Origin: a virus
DNA: 64,000 nt
Strand: one strand, 5' to 3'
Virus record (IMG/VR): IMGVR_UViG_3300028840_003271
Span: 106,005-170,004 of that record
The stretch's first letter is position 1, and the number at the start of each line of letters is the position of its first letter. Both the position numbers and the translations under genes were made by a program. The notes beneath the pieces were generated by a model, which ran no database searches, had not been told where the DNA came from, and was given only the letters and a program-made list of their open reading frames with translations. Positions 32,915 to 57,500 of the stretch are shown piece by piece.

Positions 32915-34050
32915 TGTGTTTTCTCTAAAAATTCATTAAATTGTTGTCCTATTTTTTCATAAGAAAATTGTTTTACATGAGATTGATTAATTTGAGAGGT
33001 TTTTATTTTTGTAAGCTCGTCTTGCTCATAAATCTGTCTCATAGCTTTTTGTAGTTCTAAAATAGAAATGGATTGCCAAGTTTCTCGTGCTGTATATAAA
33101 TAAGGTAGTGGTCGGTTATTAGTAACTACTGGTGTTTCAGTGCTTGGTATTATTTTATTAATTGGGTTAATGTAATCTACCATACCCGTATTCTGTGTTA
33201 CTATTACAGAATTACCAAATCCAGCAGCATCTAACATTGGACGACAGCACGCTTCTCCATGAGAAGGCATAACAAAACAATCGCAAATTTGGTGTAAAGC
33301 ACATAATTTATCTTGTGGTAAATGTTCGGTTATAATCCATTCTTTAATATATTGGTCGGTGTTTTGATAAATACCTAAATTTTTCTTAAATTGTAAAATT
33401 TCATTATCTAATTTATCTAAAAGTTGTTGAGGATGTAATCCGGCTTGACTCGTTTTGATAAGTAGACCAACCGGTTCATTAAGTGAAAATTCACGATGAA
33501 ATGCTGTTAAAAGTGCTTTTAGGTTTTTACGAGGTACATGTTCTCCTACAAAATAAAACAAAAATAGATTGTGTAATCCATGCTCCTTCCAAGGTGCTAA
33601 ATTATATTCTTGTTCGTATTTTTGAATATCTATTGCTTCATGTATTACTGATATTGGAGTTGTTACATCACTTTTTTCCAAATTGAGTTTATCCTGATGA
33701 GAAGGAGAAATAATATATTCCATTTGGTTAAGATGGTATGGCCAACTTGTGTGTTGTAAATAAGCAGTTTCAGCAATACCAAAACCAACATATTTTGAAT
33801 TTGTGTCATTAGGAAATTCTAATAAATTTGGAAGAACTTTTTGTATTATTACGTCATAGTGTGATGATTTATTTTGTTCTGCTAATACAATTTGTGGAGG
33901 AATGTTTTCATTTTTTTCAATACTTGTTGACATATAGATGGGTCGTAATGTGATATTATGTTTGGTGGTGAGTAAAGATAAAGCATAAGCACGAGCAGCC
34001 TCACCCCACCCATCAGCAGAACGATAATTACCTATAAATAGAATGTTCAT
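32911..34050 (-). CDS. GT4-like glycosyltransferase (group 1), 379 aa
   Basis: ATG 34050 overlaps the upstream stop (ATGA). GT-B fold: N-terminal MNILFIGNYRSADGWGEAAR with the glycine-rich acceptor loop; VGFGIAETAYL; ISPSHQDKLNLEKS, the end of the N-domain; then YFVGEHVPRKNLKALLTAFH, the family-4 start of the donor domain with R-K-N; and CFVMPSHGEACCRPMLDAAG, the E-x(7)-D/E-type donor motif. Full length for the family. It transfers a sugar from a nucleotide-sugar to an unknown acceptor in the cytosol. With its neighbours it forms a glycosylation island. Confidence 0.8.
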   Translation of the reverse strand: MNILFIGNYRSADGWGEAARAYALSLLTTKHNITLRPIYMSTSIEKNENIPPQIVLAEQNKSSHYDVIIQKVLPNLLEFPNDTNSKYVGFGIAETAYLQHTSWPYHLNQMEYIISPSHQDKLNLEKSDVTTPISVIHEAIDIQKYEQEYNLAPWKEHGLHNLFLFYFVGEHVPRKNLKALLTAFHREFSLNEPVGLLIKTSQAGLHPQQLLDKLDNEILQFKKNLGIYQNTDQYIKEWIITEHLPQDKLCALHQICDCFVMPSHGEACCRPMLDAAGFGNSVIVTQNTGMVDYINPINKIIPSTETPVVTNNRPLPYLYTARETWQSISILELQKAMRQIYEQDELTKIKTSQINQSHVKQFSYEKIGQQFNEFLEKTQ

Positions 34051-36905
34051 TTGTTAAGTTGCTCTTTCATATGAGCATATTCAATAAAGTCTTCTTGAGG
34101 TAACGAAATGTGACCACAACGAATTTTTTCAGCAATATTATGTTCTTTTACTCTATTAAGAATAGATTTAAAAATCATCTCACGATTAATCGATTTTGGT
34201 TTACTACCACCAGTTGAAGCTCCATAGTTTAAGTCGCGTAAAACAGATAATGTGGAATATGTATTAAGTTTTTCTGGTTGACCAAGCAGGTCTCGAAACA
34301 ACCAGTTTATAAATTTAACATTGCTCAATCCAGACGGAATTGATGATGGTTCTGGACGAAAATTTGGAGGAGCAGTGTTCCATTTTCCTTGTAAACCTGT
34401 GAGTTCTACACTGTCAAAATATTCAGACCAAATACGAGCATTTTTATCCCAATTATATTCTTTTTCAGCACCTTGCCTTGCTCGTTTTTTGTTTTTCTCT
34501 CTAAATTGTTCGTCTTTAGTGAAATATTTGTAAAGCTGTTTTGCTAAATAATCATTACTTGGTAGTGCTCGAAGAGAGCGAGTATCGTGTTCGTGAAATA
34601 TTCTTTCTACTTTCAAAGGAATACCATAGGTGTTTCGTACTACATCAGATATTGCTGTAAAATCTGTACCCATTATTGGTATGCCTGATGCTGCTGCTTC
34701 TAACATTGGAATGCCAATTCCCTCACACTGGGGGGTTACACCTATTTTTGTAGTCATAGTATGATCATCTTGAACTTCAATATTCCATACGCCGTCTTGA
34801 TAATCAATTTCTTCAATATTTTTAATTTGTAAAAGATGATAGTTGTCAATATAAACATTTCTACTATTTGATCGTTGTGTATCAAATTCTCCACTAGCAA
34901 TATTTCCACGAATTTCAAATCGATATTGTTTTTGTCTATTGTAGTTGTCATAATTTGTATATTTGTCTCTTTTTGAAATAGATATATTATAATTAATTCG
35001 CAAACGACGCAAAATATATTTAATTTGTATTGCTAATTGTTCGGAAATTGTTGAAAAACTTGATATATTTCTTTGTTTGTAATAACAACCATCACCCATA
35101 AATAAACCAATTAAAATATTTTTTTGTTTTTCTAATGGTAGATTTAATATCCAGCATGGAAACTGTTTTTCTTTTTTCTTTTTGCACATAGATAGAAATG
35201 CATGTTGGTGTAATTTTGAATGAAACATAACATCTATTGCTTTTCTAGATGGATATTTTCTCAATGTTGAATTACCAAATCTATTAAAAATATTATTTGC
35301 TAATGTAATGTTTTCTTTTTCATTTTTATGACATGTAATTTTCATACCACCCGACATAGTTGCATTACCATCAGCAACATACAATCCTAAAAATTTACAA
35401 AAATCGTTATCAATTTTAATATATCGTGGATATGTATTACCATATTTTAATTTTATTATATTGGATTCAATGGTATCTGTATTTTTACTATATTCTTTTA
35501 AGTCTAAATATTTTTTATCTTCAACCGTGTTGTCAATTGGATAAATTAATATATCACCAATCCGTAGTTGTGATAACGGTTGTATGTTTTTATTACACAA
35601 CAATTTAATATAATGTAATTTATTGTTTCTTAAGTCGTTTCCAATTTTTTCTCTTAAGGACCTGTTGCCTTTTGGAAAATCTTTTTGTTGTATACAATAA
35701 AATTTGTGATTATTAGTAGCAACTAATGTTTCATAGTCTGAATGTATGCTTATTTTTTTAATTGGTTGTTTACTACTGTGAGGAAGATTTTTCCATATAT
35801 TTATTATTGGTTTCCATTGATGTTTGTGTGTAAATACTAGATCCCCCAATTTAAGTTGTGGGATAGATTTCCATCCTTGTTTAGTTAAAATACATTCATC
35901 TTTACCTAAACAGGTGGCATATTGAACATAAACATCAAATAATTGATAAACTTCTGCTAATTGTTCTCGTATAAATCCTTCTCCAACACTTGGTAAAACA
36001 CTAGCAACAGAGTTACAAAATGGACAAACCGTTCGAGCGTCTTGAAAAAACGAACAATATGCTTTTTTACATGCTCGACAAACATAACTAAATATTACCT
36101 TGTATCCAAGTTCTGTTTCGTTTAGGAGTTGTGGAAGATGCCATCCCAAATCTGGAAAACTGGTATGGATATATAAATAACTTTTTTGAGCAAGTTCGTC
36201 TTTACCATTATCTTTACAGATTTGTAAATATTGACGAAAAGCGTGTAAAAGGTCTGGATATAATTTTCTCTTTTGGTTTCTCATAACCGTACCAATAATA
36301 AACAAATCGTCTCCCAAATTCCATTTTGCTCGATGTTTTTTAAGATTTTTTGTGGGAGAAAAAAGATTGAGGTCAACTCCAAGTGGATTAGGTTTATAAA
36401 GTTTAATTTTTCCTCCACCCTCTTTTTTTAAACAATCGAAACTCCAGTCTGTATAAGACAATACTCCGTCTGCGTGTAATAGAGTGTCTATCCACTCGTT
36501 TCTATATGGAGTACTATCATAAGTTGGTTGTTCTACCCAATGAAAAAATCTTCTTAAAGGAGAATCGTTGATGTAAAAATCCATCCAAGGGTCTCTTGTC
36601 GCAATGCATATATCTGGACAAAAGTCCAGTAATACTTTATTTAATCTCCAAAGTCCAAATTGATTAGTAGTGTTTGAATTATATTGTTTATATCGTGGAT
36701 GGTTGTCGTGAACAGCATTAGCATAAAATCTCCATTTTACATTACGGTCTCGTGGATCGTTTGTATAGCCATAAGTAGCAAATTCAGCAATGTCATACTT
36801 ATCCATAGCATGAATACGTTTGATTAATTCATTAGCGTAAACTCCAAAACCAGAATTTGTATAACTAGCTTCAGTTACAAAAAGAATCTTTTTTCTTGTT
36901 TGCAC
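34047..36905 (-). CDS. GT4-like glycosyltransferase interrupted by an intein, 952 aa precursor
   Basis: Start GTG 36905, with AAGG seven bases upstream, 34 bases inside the end of the sigma-like gene. The host enzyme is GT-B: KKILFVTEASYTNSGFGVYA at the N-terminus, PNPLGVDLNLFSPT near residue 172, IIGTVMRNQKRKLYPDLLHA beginning the donor domain, a four-cysteine zinc knuckle (CRACKKAYC, CPFC at 276-297), then DVYVQYAT (to 331). It resumes at residue 727 with CEGIGIPMLEAAASGIP, the E-x(7)-E donor motif. Residues 332-726 are an intein inserted right before that motif, so splicing should be needed for activity. Predicted mature enzyme: 557 aa. Stop overlaps the next ATG. Confidence 0.85.
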   Translation of the reverse strand: MQTRKKILFVTEASYTNSGFGVYANELIKRIHAMDKYDIAEFATYGYTNDPRDRNVKWRFYANAVHDNHPRYKQYNSNTTNQFGLWRLNKVLLDFCPDICIATRDPWMDFYINDSPLRRFFHWVEQPTYDSTPYRNEWIDTLLHADGVLSYTDWSFDCLKKEGGGKIKLYKPNPLGVDLNLFSPTKNLKKHRAKWNLGDDLFIIGTVMRNQKRKLYPDLLHAFRQYLQICKDNGKDELAQKSYLYIHTSFPDLGWHLPQLLNETELGYKVIFSYVCRACKKAYCSFFQDARTVCPFCNSVASVLPSVGEGFIREQLAEVYQLFDVYVQYATCLGKDECILTKQGWKSIPQLKLGDLVFTHKHQWKPIINIWKNLPHSSKQPIKKISIHSDYETLVATNNHKFYCIQQKDFPKGNRSLREKIGNDLRNNKLHYIKLLCNKNIQPLSQLRIGDILIYPIDNTVEDKKYLDLKEYSKNTDTIESNIIKLKYGNTYPRYIKIDNDFCKFLGLYVADGNATMSGGMKITCHKNEKENITLANNIFNRFGNSTLRKYPSRKAIDVMFHSKLHQHAFLSMCKKKKEKQFPCWILNLPLEKQKNILIGLFMGDGCYYKQRNISSFSTISEQLAIQIKYILRRLRINYNISISKRDKYTNYDNYNRQKQYRFEIRGNIASGEFDTQRSNSRNVYIDNYHLLQIKNIEEIDYQDGVWNIEVQDDHTMTTKIGVTPQCEGIGIPMLEAAASGIPIMGTDFTAISDVVRNTYGIPLKVERIFHEHDTRSLRALPSNDYLAKQLYKYFTKDEQFREKNKKRARQGAEKEYNWDKNARIWSEYFDSVELTGLQGKWNTAPPNFRPEPSSIPSGLSNVKFINWLFRDLLGQPEKLNTYSTLSVLRDLNYGASTGGSKPKSINREMIFKSILNRVKEHNIAEKIRCGHISLPQEDFIEYAHMKEQLNK
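34728..35912 (-). mobile_element. Intein (395 aa) with LAGLIDADG endonuclease inside glycosyltransferase
   Basis: Residues 332-726 of the precursor. Block A is CLGKDECILTKQGW with Cys+1 of the intein at 332 and LKLGDLVFTH after it; block B is ATNNHKFYC (T-x-x-H); endonuclease motifs are LGLYVADG (about 507) and IGLFMGDG (about 599); block F is VWNIEVQDDHTMTT. The last intein residue is Gln726, not Asn, and the residue before it is Pro rather than His; the first extein residue is Cys727. Junctions were placed by the GT motif YVQYAT-CEGIGIP. Gln-ending inteins are known but uncommon. Confidence 0.85.
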
Positions 36906-37345: not shown

Positions 37346-37702
37346 CTAGTCTTGGTTTGGATTATCGTTACGATTACGTCCCATCATTTGAAAATGTGTA
37401 ACTCGCACTAACATACGAGATCGTTTTTGACCATCATCAGTTTCCCAACGATGTTCTTTTAACATACCTTCTACAAGTAATGGAGAACCTTTGCTAAGGT
37501 ATTTAGTAGCAGTTTCAGCAGCAGTGTCCCACATTTCTAAGGGCACAAAACAAGTTTCTTTAGATGTAGAACCATCAGATTTTTTAAAACTTCGTCCAAC
37601 GGCAAGTACAAGATTGCATACGGTTACGTCTCGACCTTTAGCATTTACGACTTTGGTTTCAGGATCTCGTGCTAAATTACCATAAAGAATAACTTTATTC
37701 AT
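37346..37702 (-). CDS. ssb: Single-stranded DNA-binding protein, 118 aa
   Basis: ATG 37702 follows TTGGAGATTATTAA. OB-fold of the bacterial SSB type: MNKVILYGNLARDPETKVVN at the start, CNLVLAVGRSFKKSDG, FVPLEMWDTAAETATKYLSK, GSPLLVEGMLKEHRWETDDG and a final VTHFQMMGR. Such proteins coat single-stranded DNA at replication forks as tetramers. The C-terminal tail is very short (RNRNDNPNQD) and lacks the acidic D-D-x-I-P-F tip that recruits bacterial partners. Its stop is overlapped by the open frame of the sigma-like gene. Confidence 0.9.
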   Translation of the reverse strand: MNKVILYGNLARDPETKVVNAKGRDVTVCNLVLAVGRSFKKSDGSTSKETCFVPLEMWDTAAETATKYLSKGSPLLVEGMLKEHRWETDDGQKRSRMLVRVTHFQMMGRNRNDNPNQD

Positions 37703-37882: not shown

Positions 37883-39964
37883 TTAAATTTGTAGAACATT
37901 CTCAACCAAAAATGAATCTTTTTTCTGGTCACCTCTTTTTCCACGAAGCATTACGTGATTATTTTGAACTAATAAACTTTTACATTTTAACCAAACATCT
38001 GGAAAAACTACAATTGAAGACAATTTTCCTGTGAGATCTGATCCTTCAACAAATGCCATTTTTTGACCAGGATTTTTACCTTTTTTAGTTTTAATTTCAC
38101 GAACTTCATCTACACATATTGGAAGCATAATAATTGGATTAGAATTATTACCAGTCAAAAACTCTTTAATATTACAATTAGCATCTTCAATATTACAACT
38201 TTCAACACTAGAATGTGTTAATGAAATACCTAATAAAGATTCTTCTAAACCAGCCACCCATTCTGGTGAATCTTTCAAACTATGTGGGGGATGTTGTAGT
38301 TGTTTGACTAAATCTTCAATTTTAGCAACTCTATTTTTATTTGCACACCCCCCATCTTTACCAGCAGAAGTAGTGGATAAGTTTTCAAGCAGTTGTGTGA
38401 GAGAAGAAAATTGTGTAAGTCGTTTTTCACACCATGACTGTTCACGAGATGATAATTTAGAGTAAATTTCAAATTCATACAACATTTGAGACCGCAATAT
38501 TTTCAAATGTGATAATGAACCAACCGAGATGAGTGCTGTAATTGCTTTTGAATTTACATATTGGGATATTTTTACAAGAAATTCTAACCACGTAATTTTG
38601 TCTGTATTTATTTTTTCTCTCGATAAATGTTTTTGTAATTTAGATATTGCGGATTTACCCACTCCTTTAATGTCTGATAATCCAAAATAGATTTTTTTAT
38701 CAATAAGTTTGAAGTGTGAATTTAAATGCATAATTGATGGTGGAAGTATTTCTAAATCATATCTTCGAGTGTCGTTGATAATTTCATTAATTTCTTGTTG
38801 TGGTTTTTGTTTATCTTTAGCATAATATAAATAAGAAGTGTAAAATGCTCGTTTAAAATGTGCTTTACAATAAGCACTTAAATATGTGTTCATGGCATAA
38901 CTTACACTATGGGAATTTGAGGTTGCTATACCATTGGCATAAAATAGGTGTTCGTCGTTGTTGACTTCTATATCTATTGTTGGTGATAATCCTATATATT
39001 TAACGTCCCCCCAATCAATTTGTCCATCTATTTCATATTCTTGTCCAAAACGGTCAAAGATTTGTTTGTAATATTGAACATTGTGTTTTTTAGAAATCTG
39101 TTGAATAGATCTAATAATACCATCTTTACAAAGAAATTTATGATCTTTAGTGCATCTAATTGGTTGTTCAAGTCCCCAAAATTTATATTCGTATAATTCT
39201 TTTTGACCATTATGATATATATTTTTTACTTTACAAAATTGATGTTTATATGGATGATTTTTAACAGGACATTTAATGTAATTACCAATTTTAATATCTT
39301 TTAATGGTATTAGAATATTATTTGGTTTTTCTACATATGTAGTTTTGGGACATAAACATTTGTTGAACGAGTATCTTTGAGCACTTTCGATCCAACTAAA
39401 AATTTCTTCTGCTTCTTGTTCGTTTACTACACCCTTTTGTTTAGTACCTTCAATAAATTGTTTTTTGACTTGTGCCATTTTTTCTGGACGTTTTTTTCCT
39501 ATGGCCTTTCTTAATAATTCTGCTTGTGTTAAATTAAAACCAGCAACATCAACAGTAATTTGTAAAGCAGATTCTTGAAAGACCAAAATTCCGTATGTTT
39601 TTTCCAAAGCATTTTTCAATGATGGATGGAAATATTTAATTTCATCTTTACCGTTTTTTCTATCAATATAATGTTCGGTTAGACTTTTACCATCTAACTT
39701 ACTTTCTAATGGTCCTGGACGAAGCAAAGCATTTAGAGCCGCTAATTGTTCAATATTTTGTGGTTTAAGTGCTTTTGCAAAATGTTGACCTAGGTGAGAT
39801 TCAAGTTGGAAACACCCTTTAACTAGACCACTACTAATTAAATTCCAAGTTCGACTACAATCGAGTGGTATTTTGTTAATATCTGGTTCAAATTTTAAAG
39901 AAAAGGGATCTTCTGATAAAATTTCAAAAGAACAACCACAATCTTCAAATGTAAATTTTTTCAT
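37883..39964 (-). CDS. dnaE: DNA polymerase III alpha, C-terminal half (fingers to OB), with mini-intein
   Basis: ATG 39964 (TAATG overlap). Begins DINKIPLDCSRTWNLISSGL then VKGCFQLES, the block that follows the third catalytic aspartate in complete DnaE; the earlier domains are in the separate gene at 42909-44762. Fingers motifs: LNALLRPGPLE (78-87), YGILVFQESALQITVDVAGF, AIGKKRPEKM, and YSFNK-SHSVSYAM, the conserved F-N-K-S-H-S, which is interrupted by an intein (203-350). Later parts include GLSDIKGVGKSAISKLQ, a helix-hairpin-helix, and an OB-fold (near 600-690: PICVDEVREIKTKKGKNPGQ). With the intein removed it is about 545 aa. It must associate with the N-terminal half to make an active polymerase. 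Confidence 0.9.
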   Translation of the reverse strand: MKKFTFEDCGCSFEILSEDPFSLKFEPDINKIPLDCSRTWNLISSGLVKGCFQLESHLGQHFAKALKPQNIEQLAALNALLRPGPLESKLDGKSLTEHYIDRKNGKDEIKYFHPSLKNALEKTYGILVFQESALQITVDVAGFNLTQAELLRKAIGKKRPEKMAQVKKQFIEGTKQKGVVNEQEAEEIFSWIESAQRYSFNKCLCPKTTYVEKPNNILIPLKDIKIGNYIKCPVKNHPYKHQFCKVKNIYHNGQKELYEYKFWGLEQPIRCTKDHKFLCKDGIIRSIQQISKKHNVQYYKQIFDRFGQEYEIDGQIDWGDVKYIGLSPTIDIEVNNDEHLFYANGIATSNSHSVSYAMNTYLSAYCKAHFKRAFYTSYLYYAKDKQKPQQEINEIINDTRRYDLEILPPSIMHLNSHFKLIDKKIYFGLSDIKGVGKSAISKLQKHLSREKINTDKITWLEFLVKISQYVNSKAITALISVGSLSHLKILRSQMLYEFEIYSKLSSREQSWCEKRLTQFSSLTQLLENLSTTSAGKDGGCANKNRVAKIEDLVKQLQHPPHSLKDSPEWVAGLEESLLGISLTHSSVESCNIEDANCNIKEFLTGNNSNPIIMLPICVDEVREIKTKKGKNPGQKMAFVEGSDLTGKLSSIVVFPDVWLKCKSLLVQNNHVMLRGKRGDQKKDSFLVENVLQI
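38915..39358 (-). mobile_element. Mini-intein (148 aa) in polymerase III alpha
   Basis: Residues 203-350. It starts with Cys203 (CLCPKTTYVEK), has block B CTKDHKFLC (T-x-x-H at about 272-275), and ends HLFYANGIATSN before Ser351 of the extein (SHSVSY). No LAGLIDADG or HNH motif lies between the splicing blocks, so it is a splicing-only element. It separates Lys202 and Ser351 of the F-N-K-S-H-S fingers motif. Cyanobacterial split DnaE inteins interrupt nearly the same region, three residues away. Confidence 0.85.
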
Positions 39965-40173
39965 TAATCATATTCCCAAAATTCATATGTAATTTTGTTC
40001 TTTTTTTGTTTTTTTTGTTTTCTTTGTTTTTTTTGTTCTCTTTGTTTTCTTTGTTGGTGTTTTTGTATTGCTAAATATAGTTCTTCATCACAAGTACAAT
40101 GATACATCATTTCTCCACACATATCACAAATTTGATTAAATCTATCTTCATGTTCTTCTGAAATATCACCCAT
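39964..40173 (-). CDS. Zinc-binding protein with Lys/Gln-rich tail, 69 aa
   Basis: ATG 40173 follows TAGAGAGTAAAAATA. The N-terminal 30 residues contain CDMCGEMMYHCTC, a compact zinc-binding cluster. The middle is an extreme Lys/Gln stretch (KQREQKKQRKQKKQKKNK) that would be basic and disordered or nucleic-acid-binding. It overlaps the polymerase half-gene by one base (TAATG). No known family; its tail is similar in style to that of the protein at 22938-23516. Confidence 0.5.
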   Translation of the reverse strand: MGDISEEHEDRFNQICDMCGEMMYHCTCDEELYLAIQKHQQRKQREQKKQRKQKKQKKNKITYEFWEYD

Positions 40174-40198
40174 TATTTTTACTCTCTATAAATACTTT

Positions 40199-40435
40199 CT
40201 ATTTAATAATACATATTACAAACTTATCGGTGTCTAGAAATTTTTTACGCATATGTTCTTTATTGATTTTGTAATATATCCATCCTTTTTTATGCATAAC
40301 TTGTCGAACTAATTTTTGTAAAATTGTATTCATTACATATTCTAATTCATCTTCTGTAAAGAAATTTTGTATGTTTGAAATTAAATTTTGTACACAATTA
40401 TCATTAATATGTTTTATTTTTGAATTAAGATTCAT
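40199..40435 (-). CDS. DUF6899-like paralogue, diverged, 78 aa
   Basis: ATG 40435 overlaps the upstream gene by 11 bases. The order LISNIQNFFTEDELEYVMNT, ILQKLVRQVMHKKGWIYYKI, then NKEHMRKKF matches the layout of its upstream neighbour (LVGQLMSFNENEIEGILNYV, WRYYKINRVM), so it is a diverged tandem copy. The conserved G-I/V-L-E-C-V-K-x-E-F-Y-R-R ending of the family is missing; the sequence instead ends KFLDTDKFVICIIK. Function unknown. Confidence 0.5.
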   Translation of the reverse strand: MNLNSKIKHINDNCVQNLISNIQNFFTEDELEYVMNTILQKLVRQVMHKKGWIYYKINKEHMRKKFLDTDKFVICIIK

Positions 40436-40715
40436 AATATCTCAGGTCTCCATTTTTTTCTATTGCTTTATTCTCATAAGGTCCAGCAAGACGACGATAA
40501 AATTCTTGTTTGACACACTCCAATATTCCCATTACACGATTTATTTTGTAGTATCTCCATTTTCCATACGACAACATTGTTTTATTAATAATTTGAGTAA
40601 TGACATAATTTAATATTCCTTCAATTTCATTTTCATTAAAAGACATTAATTGTCCTACTAAATCATCAATTTCGTCGTCAATTAATTTTCTATCTTCTGA
40701 TTTAATGTATGGCAT
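40425..40715 (-). CDS. DUF6899-family protein, 96 aa
   Basis: ATG 40715 overlaps the upstream stop by one base (TAATG). MPYIKSEDRKLIDDEIDDLV at the N-terminus, GILNYVITQIINKTM, YYKINRVMGILECVKQEFYR and the end YENKAIEKNGDL are the signature of a small family found in many phages and bacteria (annotated DUF6899; I recall this from family appearance). Role unknown. It is followed by a shorter diverged copy. Confidence 0.65.
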   Translation of the reverse strand: MPYIKSEDRKLIDDEIDDLVGQLMSFNENEIEGILNYVITQIINKTMLSYGKWRYYKINRVMGILECVKQEFYRRLAGPYENKAIEKNGDLRYYES

Positions 40716-41032
40716 TATCTTGGCATTTCTGTTATTAAATGTTCAGGAACTTCAAAAGTAAAATCCGATATTGTATCTTCTGCTTCATTATATATATTTA
40801 ATTGGTCATCACTAAAATATAAACTTTTAAGTTGATAAGGTTCTAAAACAGAAACAACACCTGCTGGACACTTACCCATATAATTACATAAGTCCCATTG
40901 TAGAATTTTTAGAAATGGTGGTGTACCTAAAATAACAACAATATATTTGTAATTTCTATCCCAAGAATGTAATCTTGCTAAATATATTCCTGGTTCTGTT
41001 GGAGTGTTTTGTGAAATATCATCATTAACCAT
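40715..41032 (-). CDS. Hypothetical protein, 105 aa
   Basis: ATG 41032 follows AAAAGGAGAATATA, a strong ribosome site. The N-terminal motif TPTEPGIYLARLHSWDRNYK followed by KYIVVILGTPPFLKILQWDL is a small beta domain of the type found in many phage proteins of unknown role (the P-G-x-Y/W-x-A-R opening). No metal or catalytic motif is visible. It overlaps the DUF6899-like gene by a base. Confidence 0.5.
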   Translation of the reverse strand: MVNDDISQNTPTEPGIYLARLHSWDRNYKYIVVILGTPPFLKILQWDLCNYMGKCPAGVVSVLEPYQLKSLYFSDDQLNIYNEAEDTISDFTFEVPEHLITEMPR

Positions 41033-41054
41033 TATATTCTCCTTTTCTTATATA

Positions 41055-41336
41055 TTAATACCATGTGCCGTATCTATAAAATCGTGGATAGTAACCGTAA
41101 CTATAACCATAACCACGTCCATAATTACCATAATGATAGTGGTGAAAATAATAGGTTCGGTTTACTGGTGGTGAATAACTATACCAAGGTCCAGGAAATC
41201 CAAATGTTCCATGGTTGGAATAGCGATAACTTGCTCGTGGTACGCTTTGTACTGGAGGCTGTGGAAGATAAATTTGAGCAAAAATTGGTGAGGAAAAAAA
41301 TAGTGTCAAAAATAGTGTGAAAATTAAAGTTTTCAT
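41055..41336 (-). CDS. Small secreted or periplasmic Gly/Tyr-rich protein, 93 aa
   Basis: Start chosen as ATG 41336 (MKTLIFTLFLTLFFSS), because GGGAG lies six bases before it; an earlier in-frame ATG at 41348 overlaps that site. Residues 1-20 are a textbook signal peptide with a cleavage site after IFA. The mature part is proline-rich (YLPQPPVQSVPRA) and then nearly all Tyr, Gly, His, Arg and Phe (YHYGNYGRGYGYSYGYYPRF). Such proteins may sit in the cell envelope. A role in lysis, superinfection exclusion or attachment is possible, but nothing specific shows it. Confidence 0.6.
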   Translation of the reverse strand: MKTLIFTLFLTLFFSSPIFAQIYLPQPPVQSVPRASYRYSNHGTFGFPGPWYSYSPPVNRTYYFHHYHYGNYGRGYGYSYGYYPRFYRYGTWY

Positions 41337-41338
41337 GA

Positions 41339-41677
41339 TTACTCCCATTCAAGTAGTGTTATAGGTGATTCGTCAGTTACATTTAATCGTTCTTTAAATA
41401 CTTTTTTAACCTCGGATATAGAATTAAAGCCTGATTTTTGAGCATTTAGGTCTGTTAATTTTCCCATTTTTGTGTGTGTAACTTTGATGAGTTGTCGTAT
41501 GATACACCAGTTTAGTCTATTACAACCCAAAAGGATGTTTGTGTTTTCACGAAACGCAACATGGTTTTTAATGATAGCACAATTAGAAATATCATATAGT
41601 ATTTTTTCTCGTAAAGAATTTCCTGCAACAAGTAATGCTTGTAATGGCTGTTGTACTTCTTCATAAAAAGCAATCAT
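41339..41677 (-). CDS. Hypothetical protein, 112 aa
   Basis: ATG 41677 overlaps the stop of the exonuclease gene. Mostly helical with an LGCNRLNWCIIRQLIKVTHT stretch and a C-terminal helix (SISEVKKVFKERLNVTDESP). Two cysteines are not in a metal pattern. Its position right after the exonuclease hints at a replication accessory protein, but no family is recognised. Confidence 0.45.
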   Translation of the reverse strand: MIAFYEEVQQPLQALLVAGNSLREKILYDISNCAIIKNHVAFRENTNILLGCNRLNWCIIRQLIKVTHTKMGKLTDLNAQKSGFNSISEVKKVFKERLNVTDESPITLLEWE

Positions 41678-42378
41678 TATTTATCCTCTTTAAAAGCGTT
41701 TTTAAAAGTGTTTTTTGTTTTTTCTAAAATACGACGATGGAAATCTAAAAAACGAACAATAATTTTTGTGGTGTCTTTAACATCTTTTAGAGCATCGTGT
41801 CCTCCTTCGTTTTTAAGTCCGAGAAAAGGTCGTAAAACATCCATATTATAAGATTTTGGTTCTGATAAATTTTCAAACCAGAAAAAACATAAATGTAGTG
41901 TGTCAATAATATCACGAGGATAAAAAAGTTCCATTTCTCCTTTTTTGTCTACATGTTTGTATTTTTCACACAATCTTTGTAATATGGGAATGTCAAAACG
42001 GATAATATTTGCTCCACACGCTATTGGTGCTGAAAACTTACTTTTATTATTATTGGTTTTCGTGTGATATTTCAATAAATAATTTTTAAAATTATCAAAC
42101 ACATCTTTTTCAGATGGAGCATTTTTCCAAAGTTCTAAAATTTTATCTACAGTTGTTTTACGAATACGAGCGTGCCATTCAATAGTATCTCGGTGTTCAT
42201 CAAGGTAGTTTTGTTCACCAATAGTTGGTGGGCAAATAAAACTTTCAAAAGTGGAATCTGGTATAATTTCAAGTGTTCGTGGATTTACCATCAAAGCAGC
42301 AATTTGGGTTGGATTTGCTATTTTTGGGTCGGACGAATCTGTTTCTAAATCAAACACACATAGTTTATGAAAGTTCAC
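41677..42378 (-). CDS. DEDDh 3'-5' exonuclease (DnaQ/epsilon-like), 233 aa
   Basis: Start GTG 42378, overlapping the upstream small gene (GTGA). Motif Exo I: VFDLETD, Asp10 and Glu12; Exo II: IIRFDIPILQ, Asp129; Exo III: HDALKDVKDT, His194, Ala196 and Asp199 in the H-x-A-x-x-D form. This is the DEDDh type of proofreading or repair exonuclease. It lies between the two halves of the polymerase III alpha gene, which fits a proofreading partner, although neither the polymerase clamp-binding nor the alpha-binding peptide can be seen. Length is typical for a standalone epsilon-type domain. Confidence 0.85.
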   Translation of the reverse strand: MNFHKLCVFDLETDSSDPKIANPTQIAALMVNPRTLEIIPDSTFESFICPPTIGEQNYLDEHRDTIEWHARIRKTTVDKILELWKNAPSEKDVFDNFKNYLLKYHTKTNNNKSKFSAPIACGANIIRFDIPILQRLCEKYKHVDKKGEMELFYPRDIIDTLHLCFFWFENLSEPKSYNMDVLRPFLGLKNEGGHDALKDVKDTTKIIVRFLDFHRRILEKTKNTFKNAFKEDK

Positions 42379-42551
42379 TTAAAAGTTCTCCTACCTCGTT
42401 GTTTTTTTATACATTCTTCGTGGGTAAATCCTTCCAACAATAATTTTTTTCTCTCTTCAATTTCTTCGTCAACAGATTTCATTTCTTTACCTATCATTCT
42501 TAAATATTTAAAAGCAGCGTCGGTTGACGGCATTGGATCTGGTCGTGACAT
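42375..42551 (-). CDS. Small hypothetical protein, 58 aa
   Basis: A short frame from ATG 42551 to TGA 42375, overlapping the exonuclease start by four bases. It begins MSRPDPMPSTDAAFKYLRMI and is helical and charged (EEIEERKKLLLEGFTHEECI). Its stop-start overlaps on both sides and steady coding composition support a real gene filling the gap between the SLOG-like protein and the exonuclease. No family is recognised. Confidence 0.6.
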   Translation of the reverse strand: MSRPDPMPSTDAAFKYLRMIGKEMKSVDEEIEERKKLLLEGFTHEECIKKQRGRRTFK

Positions 42552-42552
42552 T

Positions 42553-42912
42553 TTATTCTACTTCCCTTCTAATATCGTAAACATAGGTTAAAAGTTTATA
42601 TTGTTTAGCAAGATTAATCATATGGTAGGTTCCTTGACTACCATTCCAAATTGCTAAACAGGCATCTCCTACTTTTGCCATTTCTTCATTACGACGATAA
42701 CCGGCTGATCTGCCATATTTATTCCAATCTGCTGGCATTCTTTTGATTGGAATGTCGTTATTTTTAGCGTAAAGTTCACCTAATTGATCAACCCCACGAG
42801 CAGTTCCGCTAATTATTTGTGTTATTTTTTTATGTAAATCAAATTTAGTTAGTGCTATTAGTAGAATGTTATAATCGGTAATGTCTCGTGAACCCGCTAT
42901 GATTAATTTCAT
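42553..42912 (-). CDS. SLOG-superfamily protein (DUF2493/YpsA-like), 119 aa
   Basis: ATG 42912 overlaps the polymerase stop (ATGA). MKLIIAGSRDITDY is the classic start of DUF2493; IISGTARGVDQLGELYAK carries the conserved S-G-x-A-R-G-V-D loop, and DWNKYGRSAGYRRNEEM the conserved G-x-x-A-G-x-x-R-N-x-x-M. These Rossmann-like SLOG proteins are thought to bind nucleotide-derived ligands. It sits just after the polymerase N-half. Confidence 0.85.
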   Translation of the reverse strand: MKLIIAGSRDITDYNILLIALTKFDLHKKITQIISGTARGVDQLGELYAKNNDIPIKRMPADWNKYGRSAGYRRNEEMAKVGDACLAIWNGSQGTYHMINLAKQYKLLTYVYDIRREVE

Positions 42913-44762
42913 TCTTCAATATCTCCTGTGGCTAAAATACTTGAAATCCCCATAAGTTTACTTAAAAGAGACAATCCTAAAATATCCAATTTTAACATTC
43001 CAATTTTTTCCAACTGTTCAAATTCTAAACCAGCAACTTGTTTTTTACTTTTAGTGTCATAGACCATAGGACACATTTCTCTTAAAGGTTTTGGAGCAAT
43101 AACAATGCCGGCAGCGTGTTTACTTTGAGCAGTTTTTGTACCTTCCATACGAATTGCCTGTTCAAATTTACGAGCGAACGGACCCTTAAGTTCACCATCT
43201 TCAATATAACACCAATCTTTTAATTTGTCTGAGCGATTTTCCAGTGCCCATTGAATAATAGATGACTTACCTCTTTCATCTTTCATTTCTTGTAATTCAC
43301 TTGAAATTTTTGCCTCATCTGGAATGTGTTTGGTCATTTCATTCATTTCATAAAACGGAACTCCATATGCTCGTAATACATCTTTAAGTGCTCCTCGACC
43401 TTTCATTGTGGTAAAGGTAATCATTTGAGCAACGTGGTCCTGACCATATTTTTGTGACACATATTCAATTATTTTATCTCTTTTACTTGCTGGTATATCA
43501 ATATCAATATCGGGTAGTGAGCCTTTACGAGCTTCATTATAAAATCGTGTAAATAATAGGTCATATGGTATGGGATCAACTTGTGTAATACTGATTAGAT
43601 ATGATGTCAAACAACCTGCTGCTGATCCTCTAGCTGGACCTGGTAACCATCCATTATTTCTAACATATTTGAGAATATCAGCAACAATAAGAAAGTAACT
43701 TGAAAGTCCAGCACCTTGTAAAACATTAAGTTCTTCTTTTATTCTATTTGTATATATTTGTTGATTTTCTTTTGGTATATTATTTTGTATTTTTTCTTTC
43801 CAACCGTTTTGACACAATTTTCGTAAATATTCATCTGGTGTTAAATTGTTAGGACAATCATAGGTTGGTAGTTGTGGTGGTTTCAAAATATCAGTATATT
43901 CTTCAATTAGAGACGCTACCTTGTTAGTATTTTCCAATTCTTCTTCTGTGTGACCAAAATTTAACATTTCTTCATATGATGGAATGTAATAATTTGAAGA
44001 GGAGAAAAAGCAACTTAAAATATTATTATTTTTTGCTTCTTCAAGCGTGACCGAACCCAAATTACGACATAAAAGTATACGGTGGTCTATAGCATCTTCT
44101 TTATTACAGTAGTGAGCATCGGGTGTTGCTACAATAGGTATTCCCGTTTTTTGGAATAGTTCACGAACAACAAAAGTCAACGTATCCATTTCTGGAACAT
44201 TTTCTTTATCAAAAAGTTGACTTTCAAGATAAAAATTGTCTCTACCAAAAATTTCCCGGTATTGTTCAATAAGTTTGGTTGTTTTAGAAAGTGAATTATC
44301 GTCGTCTAAAATAGACGTAGCAATTGTTGAACCTAAATGTCCACTAATACCAATAAGATTACCATCACAATATTCTGCTATCTGTTCTAAATTTAATCGT
44401 GGTTTATAATAAAAATGGTCTGGACTATTTGAATCTGATACGAGTTTTATCAATTGCTTCCAACCTTGGTCGTTTTTTGCTAATATGACTAAATGGTCAA
44501 GCGACCTATTTGAGTCATCTTTAATCTTAGCATCTTTACGACATATATATGCTTCAATGCCCAAAATGGGTTTTACATCTTTCTTTTTTGCTTCTTCTAA
44601 AAACTCTACACAACCGGAAATTGAACCGTGGTCTGTCAAAGCACACGCTTGAATTTGTAATTCTTGGAGTTTTTTGACTATTTGTTTTGGTTGGCTTAAT
44701 CCATCAAGTAGACTGAAAAGTGTGAGTGGCAATGAAGAATTGTATAATTTTTCATACCACAC
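42909..44762 (-). CDS. dnaE: DNA polymerase III alpha, N-terminal half (PHP and palm)
   Basis: From GTG 44762 the protein (617 aa) has PHP motifs ALTDHGSISG (41-50) and VATPDAHYCN (211-220), the palm GPARGSAAG (375-383), PDIDID with catalytic Asp418 and Asp420, and MLKLDILGLSLL with Asp593. It stops soon after that aspartate, and the fingers, hairpin and OB parts are in the gene at 37883-39964. The first PHP motif (H-x-H) is missing in this frame; it is in the frame of ATG 44750 (ILHCHSHFS), which has the better ribosome site. A frameshift is needed to join them (see findings). SLOG-like gene follows with an ATGA overlap. Confidence 0.9.
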   Translation of the reverse strand: MWYEKLYNSSLPLTLFSLLDGLSQPKQIVKKLQELQIQACALTDHGSISGCVEFLEEAKKKDVKPILGIEAYICRKDAKIKDDSNRSLDHLVILAKNDQGWKQLIKLVSDSNSPDHFYYKPRLNLEQIAEYCDGNLIGISGHLGSTIATSILDDDNSLSKTTKLIEQYREIFGRDNFYLESQLFDKENVPEMDTLTFVVRELFQKTGIPIVATPDAHYCNKEDAIDHRILLCRNLGSVTLEEAKNNNILSCFFSSSNYYIPSYEEMLNFGHTEEELENTNKVASLIEEYTDILKPPQLPTYDCPNNLTPDEYLRKLCQNGWKEKIQNNIPKENQQIYTNRIKEELNVLQGAGLSSYFLIVADILKYVRNNGWLPGPARGSAAGCLTSYLISITQVDPIPYDLLFTRFYNEARKGSLPDIDIDIPASKRDKIIEYVSQKYGQDHVAQMITFTTMKGRGALKDVLRAYGVPFYEMNEMTKHIPDEAKISSELQEMKDERGKSSIIQWALENRSDKLKDWCYIEDGELKGPFARKFEQAIRMEGTKTAQSKHAAGIVIAPKPLREMCPMVYDTKSKKQVAGLEFEQLEKIGMLKLDILGLSLLSKLMGISSILATGDIEE

Positions 44763-45463: not shown

Positions 45464-46023
45464 TTTAAATTTGTTAGAGAATAAAAGGGATTACAAAATT
45501 GAGAAAAATCTTTATCGTAAATACGAACACATAATTTATTTCCAAATTTAGGTTCTTTATAAGAATTGTAAGTATTAAGTATAGTTTGTAATGTAGCAGG
45601 ACTTAATAAACCAAAACGAGTGGTATTATAATTTATGTTGTTAATATCTTTTTTTAGATTTCCAGTATTCCAAAATATCAAAATCCATGCTTTTTGTTCA
45701 ATATATCTTTCTAAATTATAAACCTTAAAAGTCCATATGTTGGTTGGAGAATTTTTCATCTCTATTAGGTATTCTACATCATCAATGGTAATTTTAAAGT
45801 CAGGAGCACAACTACTTTTTTTAACTATTTTACCCGTGTTATCTATTCCATAATCTTCTACTCTAACTGAAAATCCACGACATTCCATTTCAAGTTGAAA
45901 AAGATTAACTAAAAAATTTTCTTTTTGTGTAGATTTAGCAATATCTTTTATAAATTCTTTTTGACTACGATTGTCACGACGATAATTCAAAGACTTATTT
46001 GTTTTTGTCTTTATTTTTGTCAT
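45460..46023 (-). CDS. PD-(D/E)XK nuclease-like protein, 187 aa
   Basis: The frame is open from 46086, but the start is set at ATG 46023 (MTKIKTKTNKS) with AGAAAG upstream, because earlier codons lie inside the previous gene. The core SCAPDFKITIDDVEYLIEMK has Pro-Asp, a beta hairpin and E-x-K, the metal-binding motif of PD-(D/E)XK nucleases. The preceding region is helical and the following one beta-rich. It overlaps the RecB-like nuclease gene by 29 bases, pointing to a joint role in DNA end processing or resolution. Specific substrate unknown. Confidence 0.55.
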   Translation of the reverse strand: MTKIKTKTNKSLNYRRDNRSQKEFIKDIAKSTQKENFLVNLFQLEMECRGFSVRVEDYGIDNTGKIVKKSSCAPDFKITIDDVEYLIEMKNSPTNIWTFKVYNLERYIEQKAWILIFWNTGNLKKDINNINYNTTRFGLLSPATLQTILNTYNSYKEPKFGNKLCVRIYDKDFSQFCNPFYSLTNLK

Positions 46024-46996
46024 ATAAATATTCTTTCTGAACAACATCAACACCCTTACGAGCAAATTCAAAAGAAAGCTGTTCACACTTAGTCATATAT
46101 TTACCGTAATTAGGATGGTCTTCTCGAAACTCAATAATTGGTTTGACACAAGTGTTTTCAAAGGTTGTTTTACCAAAATGACAAAATTTATTACATTTCC
46201 AGCTTTTACTCAATTTTGGTAATTGAGTAGATTGAATTTCTAAAAATCTATTTTTAATCATTTGTTTTGTTGTAGATACATCTTCTGGACCTAAACAAAT
46301 TGTAAATGGACCACCATCATTAATATAAAAGATGGTTACAAGAACATTTTTTATAGAGGGAAAAAGTAAAGTTGTAAGGTAGTGATAAATTCTTAGTTGT
46401 GGGTCTACCTGTAATTTTTCATATGTTTTTTCTTCATTTGTTGTCCAATTCCAACGACGGCCACTTTTCCAATCTACTAGCTCATATGTATTTTCGTTTG
46501 TTTGTATAACCAAGTCAATAATACCACGAAGAGTAAATTCACCCCATTTTTCTTTTACATCAATTTTAATATATTTTTCTGGTTGAACTATTGTAAGATT
46601 ATAAGGATGAAAGCGTCCATTATCAAAATCTAGGGTTTTATGAACCCACAACTTACAATCTTTTAAATCTTTTGGTGACCAAGGATGATAATCTACTACT
46701 TGAGTGGTGTAATGATTATAAACCTGGGTGGTAAGATTATCTAATTCTGTTGAGGATATTGAAAGTGTGTCAGGCACGCTAATTTGCTCACACATTTCAT
46801 CCTCAATAAATTTTTCTCCGTTTTGATAGCCCAACTTAATTTTAGCAAGAATTTCTAATACTTTATGAACAATGCTTCCTTTATCTGCTTTGATATTACT
46901 TGGCGGTTTCCATTTGAGAAGATATTCGAGAAAATATGCTTGTTGGCACATGTCCCACTGGTTGTACATCGACGAGCTTAATTTGTGTATATTCAT
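45995..46996 (-). CDS. RecB/Cas4-type PD-(D/E)XK exonuclease, 333 aa
   Basis: ATG 46996 overlaps the upstream stop (ATGA). LSSSMYNQWDMCQQAYFLEY followed by GSIVHKVLEIL is the N-terminal signature of RecB-like nucleases, with the active-site pair later in LRGIIDLVIQ and YELVDWKSGRRW (D-x-K with Asp and Lys). C-terminal cysteines (KCNKFCHFGK, TFENTC) may bind an iron-sulfur cluster together with an N-terminal cysteine, as in Cas4 and AddB-type enzymes. Probably processes replication or recombination ends. Confidence 0.8.
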   Translation of the reverse strand: MNIHKLSSSMYNQWDMCQQAYFLEYLLKWKPPSNIKADKGSIVHKVLEILAKIKLGYQNGEKFIEDEMCEQISVPDTLSISSTELDNLTTQVYNHYTTQVVDYHPWSPKDLKDCKLWVHKTLDFDNGRFHPYNLTIVQPEKYIKIDVKEKWGEFTLRGIIDLVIQTNENTYELVDWKSGRRWNWTTNEEKTYEKLQVDPQLRIYHYLTTLLFPSIKNVLVTIFYINDGGPFTICLGPEDVSTTKQMIKNRFLEIQSTQLPKLSKSWKCNKFCHFGKTTFENTCVKPIIEFREDHPNYGKYMTKCEQLSFEFARKGVDVVQKEYLYDKNKDKNK

Positions 46997-54599: not shown

Positions 54600-57500
54600 T
54601 TAAATTAAACACGCTCCACCTGAACAGGTTGGTTCGTTTTCAAAATGTGTGTTATCCGTTTCTTCAACCATTTTTGTATAATCAACCGGTTTAAGATTGG
54701 ATTGTAATTCACAATAAAGTTTCCAATTATAAACATCTTTCATACAATATGTAAGTTGACGAATATCATTATCGACAAATTTTTTAGCAAATTTTACCAT
54801 GTCATCATAAAATTCAAGCTGTAAAACAGATTTTCTAGCTTTTCGTCTGTCTTTAAGTGTAAGTTTTTCTGCTTCTTCTCTTTGTGTATCAATAAGACAA
54901 AAGTCACACGCTTGCCATAAATTGTTGTCAAAAGCTCTTAATGCTCTTTCAATAAGTCCACTTGTCCAGATAGCATAGTTTCCGTATTTTGATACAATTT
55001 CGTGTGACATGAGAACTGTAGTATATGGTGCTTGTGGATAATCCAAATCTCCTTTTTCAGAAATAAAAGAAAGTCCAACAAAATGTCGTCTATTTTTATA
55101 AATAAAATCTATTATTTCATCCCATTCATCATCTTGTACAAATATTGTATTACTTACACTATGATTCAACCATGGTTTCAAACACAAATCGATATTTTTA
55201 CCTGAATTTATCCAATTTTGTTGAGTATTTTTGACACATTCCAACATAGATAATGCTGAAAAATTATATTTAGTTTTTGAACCAGCAGGAACTTCAATAG
55301 GAAAAATAATATTTTCATCTGTTGAATTCGATGACCAAATTGAAGTTTCTACAGCCCAAGGGTTGTTTCTTTTGAAATGTTGATAAGGAATTTCTGTAAT
55401 ATTGTTTTGTACCCGTCTTAAATATCTTTTTGCATGATGTGGATGAATACCAGACGACGTACTACACAATAGGGAGGCTGTACCGGATGGTTTAATGGCA
55501 GTACAGCGTGCTGCTGAATTTATTCCAATTTTAGTAGCAAAGTCTCTGTTAGTTTTTTGAATTAACTTTGCTGCTTTTTTTTGTATTGATGAGTTAAGAG
55601 TAATTTCACTTTTTTCCATCATGCCGGTCATTGACACACCTAATAATGCTTCTTTTTCAACTATTTTTTGTGTAGGATTTTTGAGATAAGAAAAGTCTGT
55701 TAAACCAGCTTGTAGAGTTCCAATAATAGTGGCAGCTTTACATCTTTCATAAAAATCTTCTTCGTTTTCAAGATTACCACAGTTTATTGTTGATAAATTA
55801 CAAAATGACCACCCAGAAGTTGAAGTTTCATCGTCATGGGCATAAAGTGCAATTTCTCCACAATTTGCTACATGACAACCGTGTGTCCAATATGAATGTG
55901 ACACATCTGCTGTTGTTAAATCATAAACGTCGTCCATACCAATAAATTCTTTGCTAATTATATCATATGTAGTTTTACTACGACACGACTTAATATTAAG
56001 AATTTTATTAAGTTTGTCTTGTTTGTATTTTTGAATAAAACCTATATATTTAGCAAATATTTTTCTGTCTGTAGAAATGTTTAAATCGTAACTTTTTTTA
56101 CATGGATAACATCCGTTTTGAAATTTTACCATACAACCTTTATTTGTAGTAAAATATGACTTTATACCTATACTTGATAACATTAATTGAACATTTTCAA
56201 TAATATTTTTTGATGCTGATTTTAAGGTAATACGATTACCACAAATACTACCATTTGCTGAAAACAATCCTCTTAAAAACGAAGCCACTTCTTCAGCATT
56301 ACCCTCAATATATCTCTTGGGTATAGAGCGTTCGTATGTTAATGGTAATTCTGAATATAGAATATTTGTTTGAATTGTATAAGCGTGTGTGCTAATACCA
56401 GGTCTATGTTTAATAATATATTTTGATACTTCGTCGGTAAAATAGTCTTTATCTTTTTGACCAATACATAAATATACTAAATTATTAGATGCTTTATGAA
56501 CCGAACCATCTCCTAATACTAAACCGTCCATTACATATTGTTGATTTAAAAATAATGAATCGTTGTTTGGTCCAGTAATAATATCAATACTTTCGGCTTG
56601 GTCTACTTCTATTTTTTCTTTATTAGTTAAAACTTTATGATGAGCAGTTCCATAAAAGACACTTGCTGTAGTATTATATTTATAAATTGATTGAATACCC
56701 TTATGGGTTTTATTGGTTACTGTTGTCCAATTTTTACCAGTCCATATTAAATCTCCAATATTTATATTATCAATTTGTTGTAATCCTTCTGGAGTAAGAA
56801 TATAAGCCCATCCTGGCTGACAGGGATTAATAAGTGCTTCTTTATCGTCTGCAAATATAAATCCGGGCTCGCCATATTCACGAATATTTTCAAAAATTTG
56901 CTTGAATGTTTTTTTGTCTATTTCTTTTCTCAATAAAATTACCGAATTATTTGCTCGTGCTCTTTGTGGATTTTCTTGAAGCCAATTTCCTGTTTTGCAT
57001 TTCATCATTTCTTTATCGTCTAATGAAAATAATGCTATACACGAAGATCGACGAACTCCACCACTTAGAACGGCATCGGAAATGTAACATATCAGGTCGT
57101 GAGCGTCGATAGGTTTTAATCTCTCCTGTCCGTCTTTGATGCACCTATCCAACAGAGCACGTATTTTATTATGGGCTCGTTTTAAAGGTTCTGGACCTGG
57201 AGCACGTCCTGATGACGAGCTTAAATAAGCACCTTCTGGACGAATTTTACTATAATTGAATTCAACATATTGTCCAGCAGGTGATAAATATGACGAGACT
57301 AATTTACCAATTGAATCAGACCATCCTTCAATAGTATCTGGAATAATAAATTGTTCAGCACTTTTCCAACCATATTTATTTTTTACTCCGTAAACAGCAT
57401 CTTGATTAAATTTTGGTAATTGATTAATGTGTTGAAATTGAACACTGTAGCCCACTCCTGCTCCACACAACAAAACATACATACATTCTTGAAAAAAATC

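What the first reader, a model, noticed from the sequence alone, without database searches (positions are those of the whole stretch)
37883..44762. DNA polymerase III alpha divided into two genes 2.9 kb apart
The N-half (42909-44762) ends shortly after the third catalytic Asp (LKLDILG); the C-half (37883-39964) begins with the next conserved block (IPLD ... GCFQLES). Between them lie about eight genes, including a DEDDh exonuclease. Neither broken end has split-intein sequence, so the polymerase would have to work as two associated chains.
Basis: partly seen in the sequence, partly recalled or inferred. Interest (0 to 1): 0.75.

Follow-up and report, generated by a model that had tools for sequence, protein, structure and literature searches.

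The report
Phage DNA polymerase made in halves
A large group of uncultured phages builds its only detected DNA polymerase from two separate proteins, with the proofreading gene lying between the two genes, and in about a quarter of the group the ribosome must also appear to jump over a few bases to read the first half.

Summary
The split is real and clade-wide. The window's N-gene encodes PHP, palm and thumb (all three catalytic Asp); the C-gene encodes fingers, HhH and OB. Profile scans of IMG/VR gave 155 loci holding both halves, and all have the order DnaE-N, DEDDh exonuclease, DnaE-C as separate ORFs, mostly 0.86-0.98 kb apart. The break is the palm/fingers junction. No split intein sits at it, and the 170-kb record has no other polymerase (PolA, PolB or second Pol III). 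The best reading is a two-chain Pol III alpha, probably with the exonuclease as third subunit.

The N-gene starts at ATG 44755, not GTG 44762, and its frame breaks at the PHP HxH motif (about 44714-44719).

That break led to an unexpected feature. In 68 relatives' loci the same motif is interrupted by a stop codon and 8-11 nt inside a conserved hairpin. A second, mutually exclusive hairpin begins at the start codon. This is the layout of T4 gene 60 translational bypassing. The window itself lacks this hairpin; its break is unexplained. A minimal split Pol III alpha was reported in other jumbo phages (PMC7824862). I found neither this full-domain version nor the bypass candidate described.

The parts
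42909..44755 (-). DnaE-N: PHP + palm + thumb of Pol III alpha, from the likely true ATG (44755) after AAGGAGG; needs a frame change near codon 13
   Evidence: Pfam PHP, DNA_pol3_alpha; PDB alpha structures E down to 9e-84; Shine-Dalgarno and ATG with LHCHSHF; family invariant PHP ligands
44714..44719 (-). Reading-frame break (CAC TTT TC AGT CTA): +2 or -1 needed to join HCHSHF to SLLDG; same motif that is interrupted by a hairpin in relatives
   Evidence: three-frame translation; no significant hairpin here, z=0.1
42553..42912 (-). YspA/cpYpsA-related SLOG-family protein between the two halves
   Evidence: Pfam PF10686 6e-13
41677..42378 (-). DEDDh 3'-5' exonuclease (DnaQ-like), between the halves in every relative
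   Evidence: Pfam RNase_T 2e-6, phrog_192 DNA polymerase exonuclease subunit 1e-15; alignment A2; order in 155 loci
39964..41677 (-). Six short ORFs of unknown function that widen the gap in this genome
   Evidence: no PHROG hit
37883..39964 (-). DnaE-C: fingers + HhH + OB of Pol III alpha
   Evidence: Pfam DNA_pol3_finger, HHH_6; OB tRNA_anti-codon in relative L007; PDB alpha
39893..39964 (-). New N-terminal extension of DnaE-C with CGC motif; later Cys (LDC) completes an invariant C-x-C...C set
   Evidence: alignments (C17, G18, C19, C44 invariant in 51 sequences)
38918..39358 (-). Mini-intein (147 aa) inserted at SFNK|SHS of DnaE-C; absent from relatives
   Evidence: gap in all relatives; DnaE inteins in PDB E=7e-4; TIGR01443 intein_Cterm over its cut-off in the full protein; Pfam Intein_splicing only E=0.016
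37346..37702 (-). SSB, directly downstream of DnaE-C here and in relatives
   Evidence: Pfam SSB 7e-26
45995..46996 (-). PDDEXK nuclease upstream of DnaE-N, same neighbour in relatives
   Evidence: Pfam PDDEXK_1 2e-17

Best explanation
These phages carry a two-chain replicative Pol III alpha. DnaE-N (PHP, palm, thumb, all three catalytic Asp) and DnaE-C (fingers, HhH, OB) are translated separately from one operon that also encodes the proofreading exonuclease between them. They would associate non-covalently at the palm/fingers junction to form one active site. The C-half's new CGC-containing extension and the N-half's short C-terminal tail replace the lost linker and probably form part of the interface. 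Shown: conserved split, domain content, conserved catalytic residues, absence of other polymerases in the record, co-inheritance. Inferred: association, activity, the role of the extension, and the exonuclease as a subunit.
For: All 155 loci with both halves have N - exo - C as separate ORFs. N and C distances correlate (r=0.816, 0/500 permutations). All palm Asp and PHP ligands are invariant in 45 N-halves, and finger motifs are conserved in 51 C-halves. No split intein at the break in any locus examined. Only one Pol III alpha, no PolA/PolB in G000. AlphaFold models of the halves match the corresponding parts of solved alpha structures (N: TM 0.77 to 3e0d; C: E 2e-21 to 4iqj). Low confidence falls on the GRGSAAG loop of N and the RPG loop of C, which in intact alpha lie around the active site.
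Against: No complex could be modelled and nothing is biochemical. G000 is a linear record of unknown completeness, so another polymerase could lie outside it. C-half global TM-scores are modest (0.52 or less, possibly from hinges between domains). No host is known and no close relative is in the INPHARED collection (best identity about 36%).
Confidence: 0.86

Rival explanations
1. The halves are joined covalently after transcription, by RNA trans-splicing or protein trans-splicing, so the working enzyme is a single chain.
For: Some relatives (L129, L140, L146, L149) have a further break at GRG|SAAG with a true split intein, so trans-splicing occurs in this gene family.
Against: At the palm/fingers break no N- or C-intein sequence is present in any of the ~80 N-ends and ~87 C-starts read. 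Both ends carry their own stop, start and conserved extension. No Rfam intron in the window.
Confidence: 0.05
2. The halves are decaying remnants and the phage replicates with a host or another polymerase.
For: The window copy has a frame break in the PHP motif.
Against: Catalytic and structural residues are invariant in both halves over deep divergence; correlated distances; complete replication module nearby (DnaB, primase-like Toprim, SSB).
Confidence: 0.03
3. The halves act as two different enzymes: N-half as a PHP nuclease and C-half as a DNA-binding factor, without forming a polymerase.
For: Separate translation; PHP metal ligands intact.
Against: Palm Asp and GS motif are conserved although a nuclease would not need them; finger residues are conserved although a simple DNA-binding protein would not need them.
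Confidence: 0.05

Closest known systems
Bacterial Pol III alpha (DnaE1; E. coli, Thermus, M. tuberculosis)
   Same: Domain order, catalytic Asp, PHP ligands, HhH and OB
   Different: One chain in bacteria and in the named phages checked here; here two genes cut at alpha residues ~564-584
Minimal split Pol III alpha of group 2.2 jumbo phages (Iyer et al. 2021, PMC7824862)
   Same: Pol III alpha catalytic module divided into two genes, proposed to reassemble
   Different: That one is described as minimal, without other Pol III domains, divided into an NTP-binding N part and a Mg/template-binding C part, and lives beside a family B polymerase. Here PHP, thumb, fingers, HhH and OB are present, all Asp are in the N part, and no PolB is found
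Cyanobacterial DnaE-N/DnaE-C with split intein (cited in PMC3919608)
   Same: DnaE encoded by two genes
   Different: From general knowledge, broken near the FNKSHS region and joined by intein trans-splicing; here the break is upstream of the fingers and has no intein
Split PolB of Pseudomonas phage MIJ3 (PMC6892783)
   Same: Phage polymerase divided between genes
   Different: Family B and intein-associated
T4 gene 60 translational bypass (PMC5009743, PMC11194080)
   Same: For the hairpin in relatives: stop right after take-off codon, take-off stem-loop, 5' stem-loop sharing a strand with it, often matched landing codon
   Different: Gap 8-11 nt instead of 50; nascent chain only 13-14 aa, so no KKYK-type signal at the T4 distance; landing codon first base mismatched in 10/34

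Membership tests
DnaE-type Pol III alpha | PHP domain with metal ligands | tested here: met
   (H7, H9, D16, H41, E66, H86, H138, D214, H216 invariant in relatives); in the window HxH is in another frame
DnaE-type Pol III alpha | Palm with three catalytic Asp | tested here: met
   PDID (D418, D420) and LDILG (D593) in A3
DnaE-type Pol III alpha | Fingers, HhH, OB | tested here: met
DnaE-type Pol III alpha | Single polypeptide | tested here: not met
DnaE-type Pol III alpha | DNA polymerase activity | not testable with these tools
   needs biochemistry
Cyanobacterial split-intein DnaE | IntN after N-half and IntC before C-half | tested here: not met
Minimal split Pol III alpha of group 2.2 jumbo phages | Other Pol III domains absent | tested here: not met
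   PHP, HhH, OB present
Minimal split Pol III alpha of group 2.2 jumbo phages | Accompanied by family B polymerase | tested here: not met
   no PF00136 in G000; record may be incomplete
Intein (insert in DnaE-C) | N-terminal Cys, TxxH, C-terminal Asn and Ser +1, absent from relatives | tested here: met
   CLCP..TKDH..TSN|S; penultimate His replaced by Ser
T4 gene 60-type translational bypass (relatives only) | Stop codon directly after take-off codon inside a stem-loop | tested here: met
   68/68 DnaE-N loci found by a pattern that requires TA after the Ser codon; all give TAA/TAG; also seen in loci found by protein
T4 gene 60-type translational bypass (relatives only) | 5' stem-loop sharing a strand with the take-off stem | tested here: met
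[quoted passage not shown]
   UCN landing triplet in 24/34, ACU/GCU/GCC in 10/34
T4 gene 60-type translational bypass (relatives only) | Joined product made | not testable with these tools
   needs mass spectrometry

The most novel reading that the evidence does not exclude
In about a quarter of this clade (36 of ~160 loci found by protein), the N-half is made by programmed ribosome bypassing. The ribosome translates M..Y(V/I/T)PLHVHS, meets UAA/UAG, detaches from the Ser codon, slides 8-11 nt while the 5' stem-loop re-forms behind it, and resumes at the His/Met codon, restoring the PHP metal motif HxHS-(H/M)-(Y/F)-SLLDG. This would be a compact natural phage bypass element with T4 gene 60-like architecture, repeatedly gained and lost on top of a permanently split polymerase.
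Probability: 0.68. Interest if true: 0.86.

Novelty: new variant of a known kind. Interest (0 to 1): 0.68.

Why it matters
Replicative Pol III alpha is treated as an indivisible chain; a whole phage clade that has kept it in two pieces at the palm/fingers junction gives a natural system for how its active site assembles and for split-polymerase design. The related hairpin would add a compact, comparable set of natural sequences to the very few known cases of translational bypassing and make its rules testable.

Tried and rejected
Second polymerase elsewhere: none in G000 (no beta clamp either). Frameshift or assembly artefact for the split: rejected by 155 loci. Split intein at the break: none. 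Window N-half sharing the relatives' hairpin: rejected (z=0.1), so its frame break is left unexplained and may be a sequencing error. My first pairing register for the hairpin count was wrong and is not used; it was replaced by per-sequence registers. Tree-based sign test for the 5' stem covariation has too few independent pairs (3 of 3 in the same direction, p=0.25). Group I intron in L166: no Rfam hit. Scripts had a frame slip or missed motif; they were redone. First C-half scan found nothing, probably because patterns drawn from the window's divergent, intein-bearing sequence were too specific.

Full report
Observation. The window is bases 106005-170004 of a 170,004-base virus record. Two minus-strand ORFs encode complementary parts of DNA polymerase III alpha. 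The 617-codon ORF 42909-44762 carries PHP and the palm/thumb region; the 693-codon ORF 37883-39964 carries fingers and HhH. Against solved structures they match E. coli alpha residues 15-563 and 585-1055. The missing stretch, about 564-584, is the start of the fingers just after the last palm Asp. Nine ORFs lie between, one a DEDDh exonuclease.

The split is a clade trait. A protein query found ten relatives at 54-58% identity, and profile searches with both halves returned many more. Of the loci that contain both halves, 155 of 155 have DnaE-N, then the exonuclease, then DnaE-C, as separate ORFs. The gap is 859-983 bp in nearly all, and 1.6-5.3 kb in about nine; in the window it is 2.9 kb. 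Some loci are the same contig fetched twice; 112 N-halves remain at under 97% identity. The usual order is PDDEXK nuclease, DnaE-N, a ~59-aa protein, exonuclease, DnaE-C, SSB. Pairwise distances of N and C correlate (r=0.816; N and exonuclease 0.817; 0 of 500 permutations). A contig binned in a Lokiarchaeota MAG (L244) also has the separate C-half with the same N-terminal extension. INPHARED holds 1,362 records with DnaE relatives, but none above about 36-37% identity among the best listed; in the records that appear in both lists the N and C matches lie side by side.

How it most likely works. All three palm Asp and all nine PHP ligands are invariant in the N-halves, and finger motifs are invariant in the C-halves. 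Nothing at the broken ends resembles an intein; instead the N-half ends with a short conserved helix (MLDKIMTISDLL) and the C-half begins with a conserved F-x-Y-CGC-x-F extension, followed by an invariant Cys in L(D/E)C. AlphaFold models of each half from a relative are confident and match their part of solved alpha (N TM 0.77); low confidence is confined mainly to the GRGSAAG loop in N and the RPG loop in C. I infer that the chains assemble at the palm/fingers junction and that the CGC extension is part of the interface; a shared metal site with the invariant N-half Cys (VCPMVYD) is possible but untested. No PolA, PolB, second alpha or beta clamp was found in the record, so this is probably the replicative enzyme. 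The exonuclease keeps its catalytic residues in nearly all relatives; in L001 it is degenerate.

Mobile elements in the gene. The window C-half has a 147-aa insert between SFNK and SHS that all aligned relatives lack. Its best PDB matches are DnaE inteins (E=7e-4), and the intein C-terminal model passes its cut-off in the full protein, although Pfam's intein model gives only E=0.016; I call it a mini-intein. L001 has an HNH intein at RPG (Pfam 4e-12). L129, L140, L146 and L149 are cut a second time at GRG|SAAG, in those read by a split intein; in L129 a Vsr-like endonuclease gene lies between (the Vsr assignment is my reading of the sequence). L166 has an insertion at SMPDID with a LAGLIDADG-like ORF and no Rfam hit. 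None of these is at the palm/fingers break.

The start of DnaE-N. In the window the annotated GTG overlaps the Shine-Dalgarno sequence. The ATG at 44755 reads MKNYTILHCHSHF, the proper PHP motif, and then a +2 (or -1) shift is needed to reach SLLDG. The window has no significant RNA structure there; sequencing error, real frameshift and recoding all remain possible.

In relatives the same motif is interrupted in a specific way. Of the loci found by protein, 36 have LHVHS followed directly by TAA or TAG, and the downstream reading frame lies 8-12 nt on, in all three phases. A pattern scan found 73 hairpins in IMG/VR, 68 of them at this site and five elsewhere that look like chance, from more than 50 metagenomes. 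The 34 distinct hairpins, with gaps of 8-11 nt, fold with mean z -5.1. They consist of GUCCAUUC/GGAUGGAC around an inner stem in which the inserted bases pair with the downstream codons. Inner-stem cells paired: 197 of 204 versus a shuffled mean of 173.8, reached by none of 5,000 shuffles, with pair types UA, AU, UG, GU and CG at one position; part of that excess reflects two register classes, and within the larger class alone pairing does not exceed its shuffles. A second stem pairs the start region AUGG(A/G)C(G/A)UG with CA(C/U)GUCCAU, fully in 37 of 39 distinct copies, with GUG:CAC in 22 and AUG:CAU in 14; all 34 distinct copies fold with the start codon inside the stem (mean -18 kcal/mol, z -6.0 in the 31 tested).

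Why bypassing is the leading reading of that element. ORF1 keeps Y(V/I/T/S)PLHVHS with five different Leu codons, so it is selected as protein. The resume codon is always His or Met, as in uninterrupted genes, although it lies in the loop. Removing the gap gives exactly the uninterrupted sequence: L030 and L050 lack it while 82%-identical L064 and L072, in the same supported clade, have it. No start codon with a Shine-Dalgarno at proper spacing is conserved in the ORF2 frame, by inspection. The layout (take-off codon, stop, take-off stem, overlapping 5' stem) is that described for T4 gene 60, where re-forming the 5' stem is proposed to pull the mRNA (PMC5009743; PMC11194080). Here the shared strand is 9 nt and the slide 8-11 nt, which fits that motor, by inference. 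Against it: the landing triplet mismatches in 10 of 34 copies, the nascent chain is too short for a gene 60-type peptide signal, and burying the AUG could instead mean a translation switch. The element is scattered on the tree (18 changes, at least 9 forced by supported branches), so it is lost often, or moves.

Literature. A minimal split Pol III alpha was described in group 2.2 jumbo phages beside PolB (PMC7824862). The C-family survey PMC3919608 mentions intein-split cyanobacterial DnaE and fragments due to frameshifts. I found no report of this full-domain split or of bypassing in a DNA polymerase, within the limits of the library searched.

Noticed in passing
68 loci at the start of DnaE-N, e.g. 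L010 7960-8020, L009 7965-8015, L003 7636-7670: Stop codon plus 8-11 nt inside a conserved hairpin at the PHP motif, with a mutually exclusive 5' stem-loop that buries the start codon; candidate translational bypass element like T4 gene 60.
   Followed up: yes
window 44714-44719 (-): Frame break in the same PHP motif without the hairpin; the only such copy among those examined. Could be a sequencing error, a real frameshift or recoding.
   Followed up: partly
L129:4044-7120; also L140, L146, L149: DnaE-N is cut again at GRG|SAAG by a split intein; in L129 a Vsr-like endonuclease gene lies between, so the polymerase is encoded in three pieces.
   Followed up: partly
L166:5399-6501: About 1.1 kb insertion at SMPDID containing a LAGLIDADG-like ORF; probably an intron but no Rfam match.
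   Followed up: partly
L001:15035-17503 and L001:11535-12254: HNH-containing intein at RPG of DnaE-C, and an exonuclease that has lost its DEDDh residues although the gene is kept.
   Followed up: partly
window 34047-36905 (-) and 54600-57791 (-): Glycosyltransferase and B12-type ribonucleotide reductase genes each carry an intein-like insert with a LAGLIDADG endonuclease.
   Followed up: no
relatives, between DnaE-N and exonuclease, e.g. L007:5153-5335: Conserved ~59-aa protein with an SCC...N motif, no Pfam match; not obviously present in the window.
   Followed up: no
L007:6027-6110 and homologues; N-half Cys of VCPMVYD: Invariant CGC...C cysteines in the new extension of DnaE-C plus an invariant Cys near the end of DnaE-N; possible metal site across the split.
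   Followed up: partly
L243, L244: Relatives on contigs binned into a Flavobacteriales MAG and a Lokiarchaeota MAG; host assignments uncertain.
   Followed up: no
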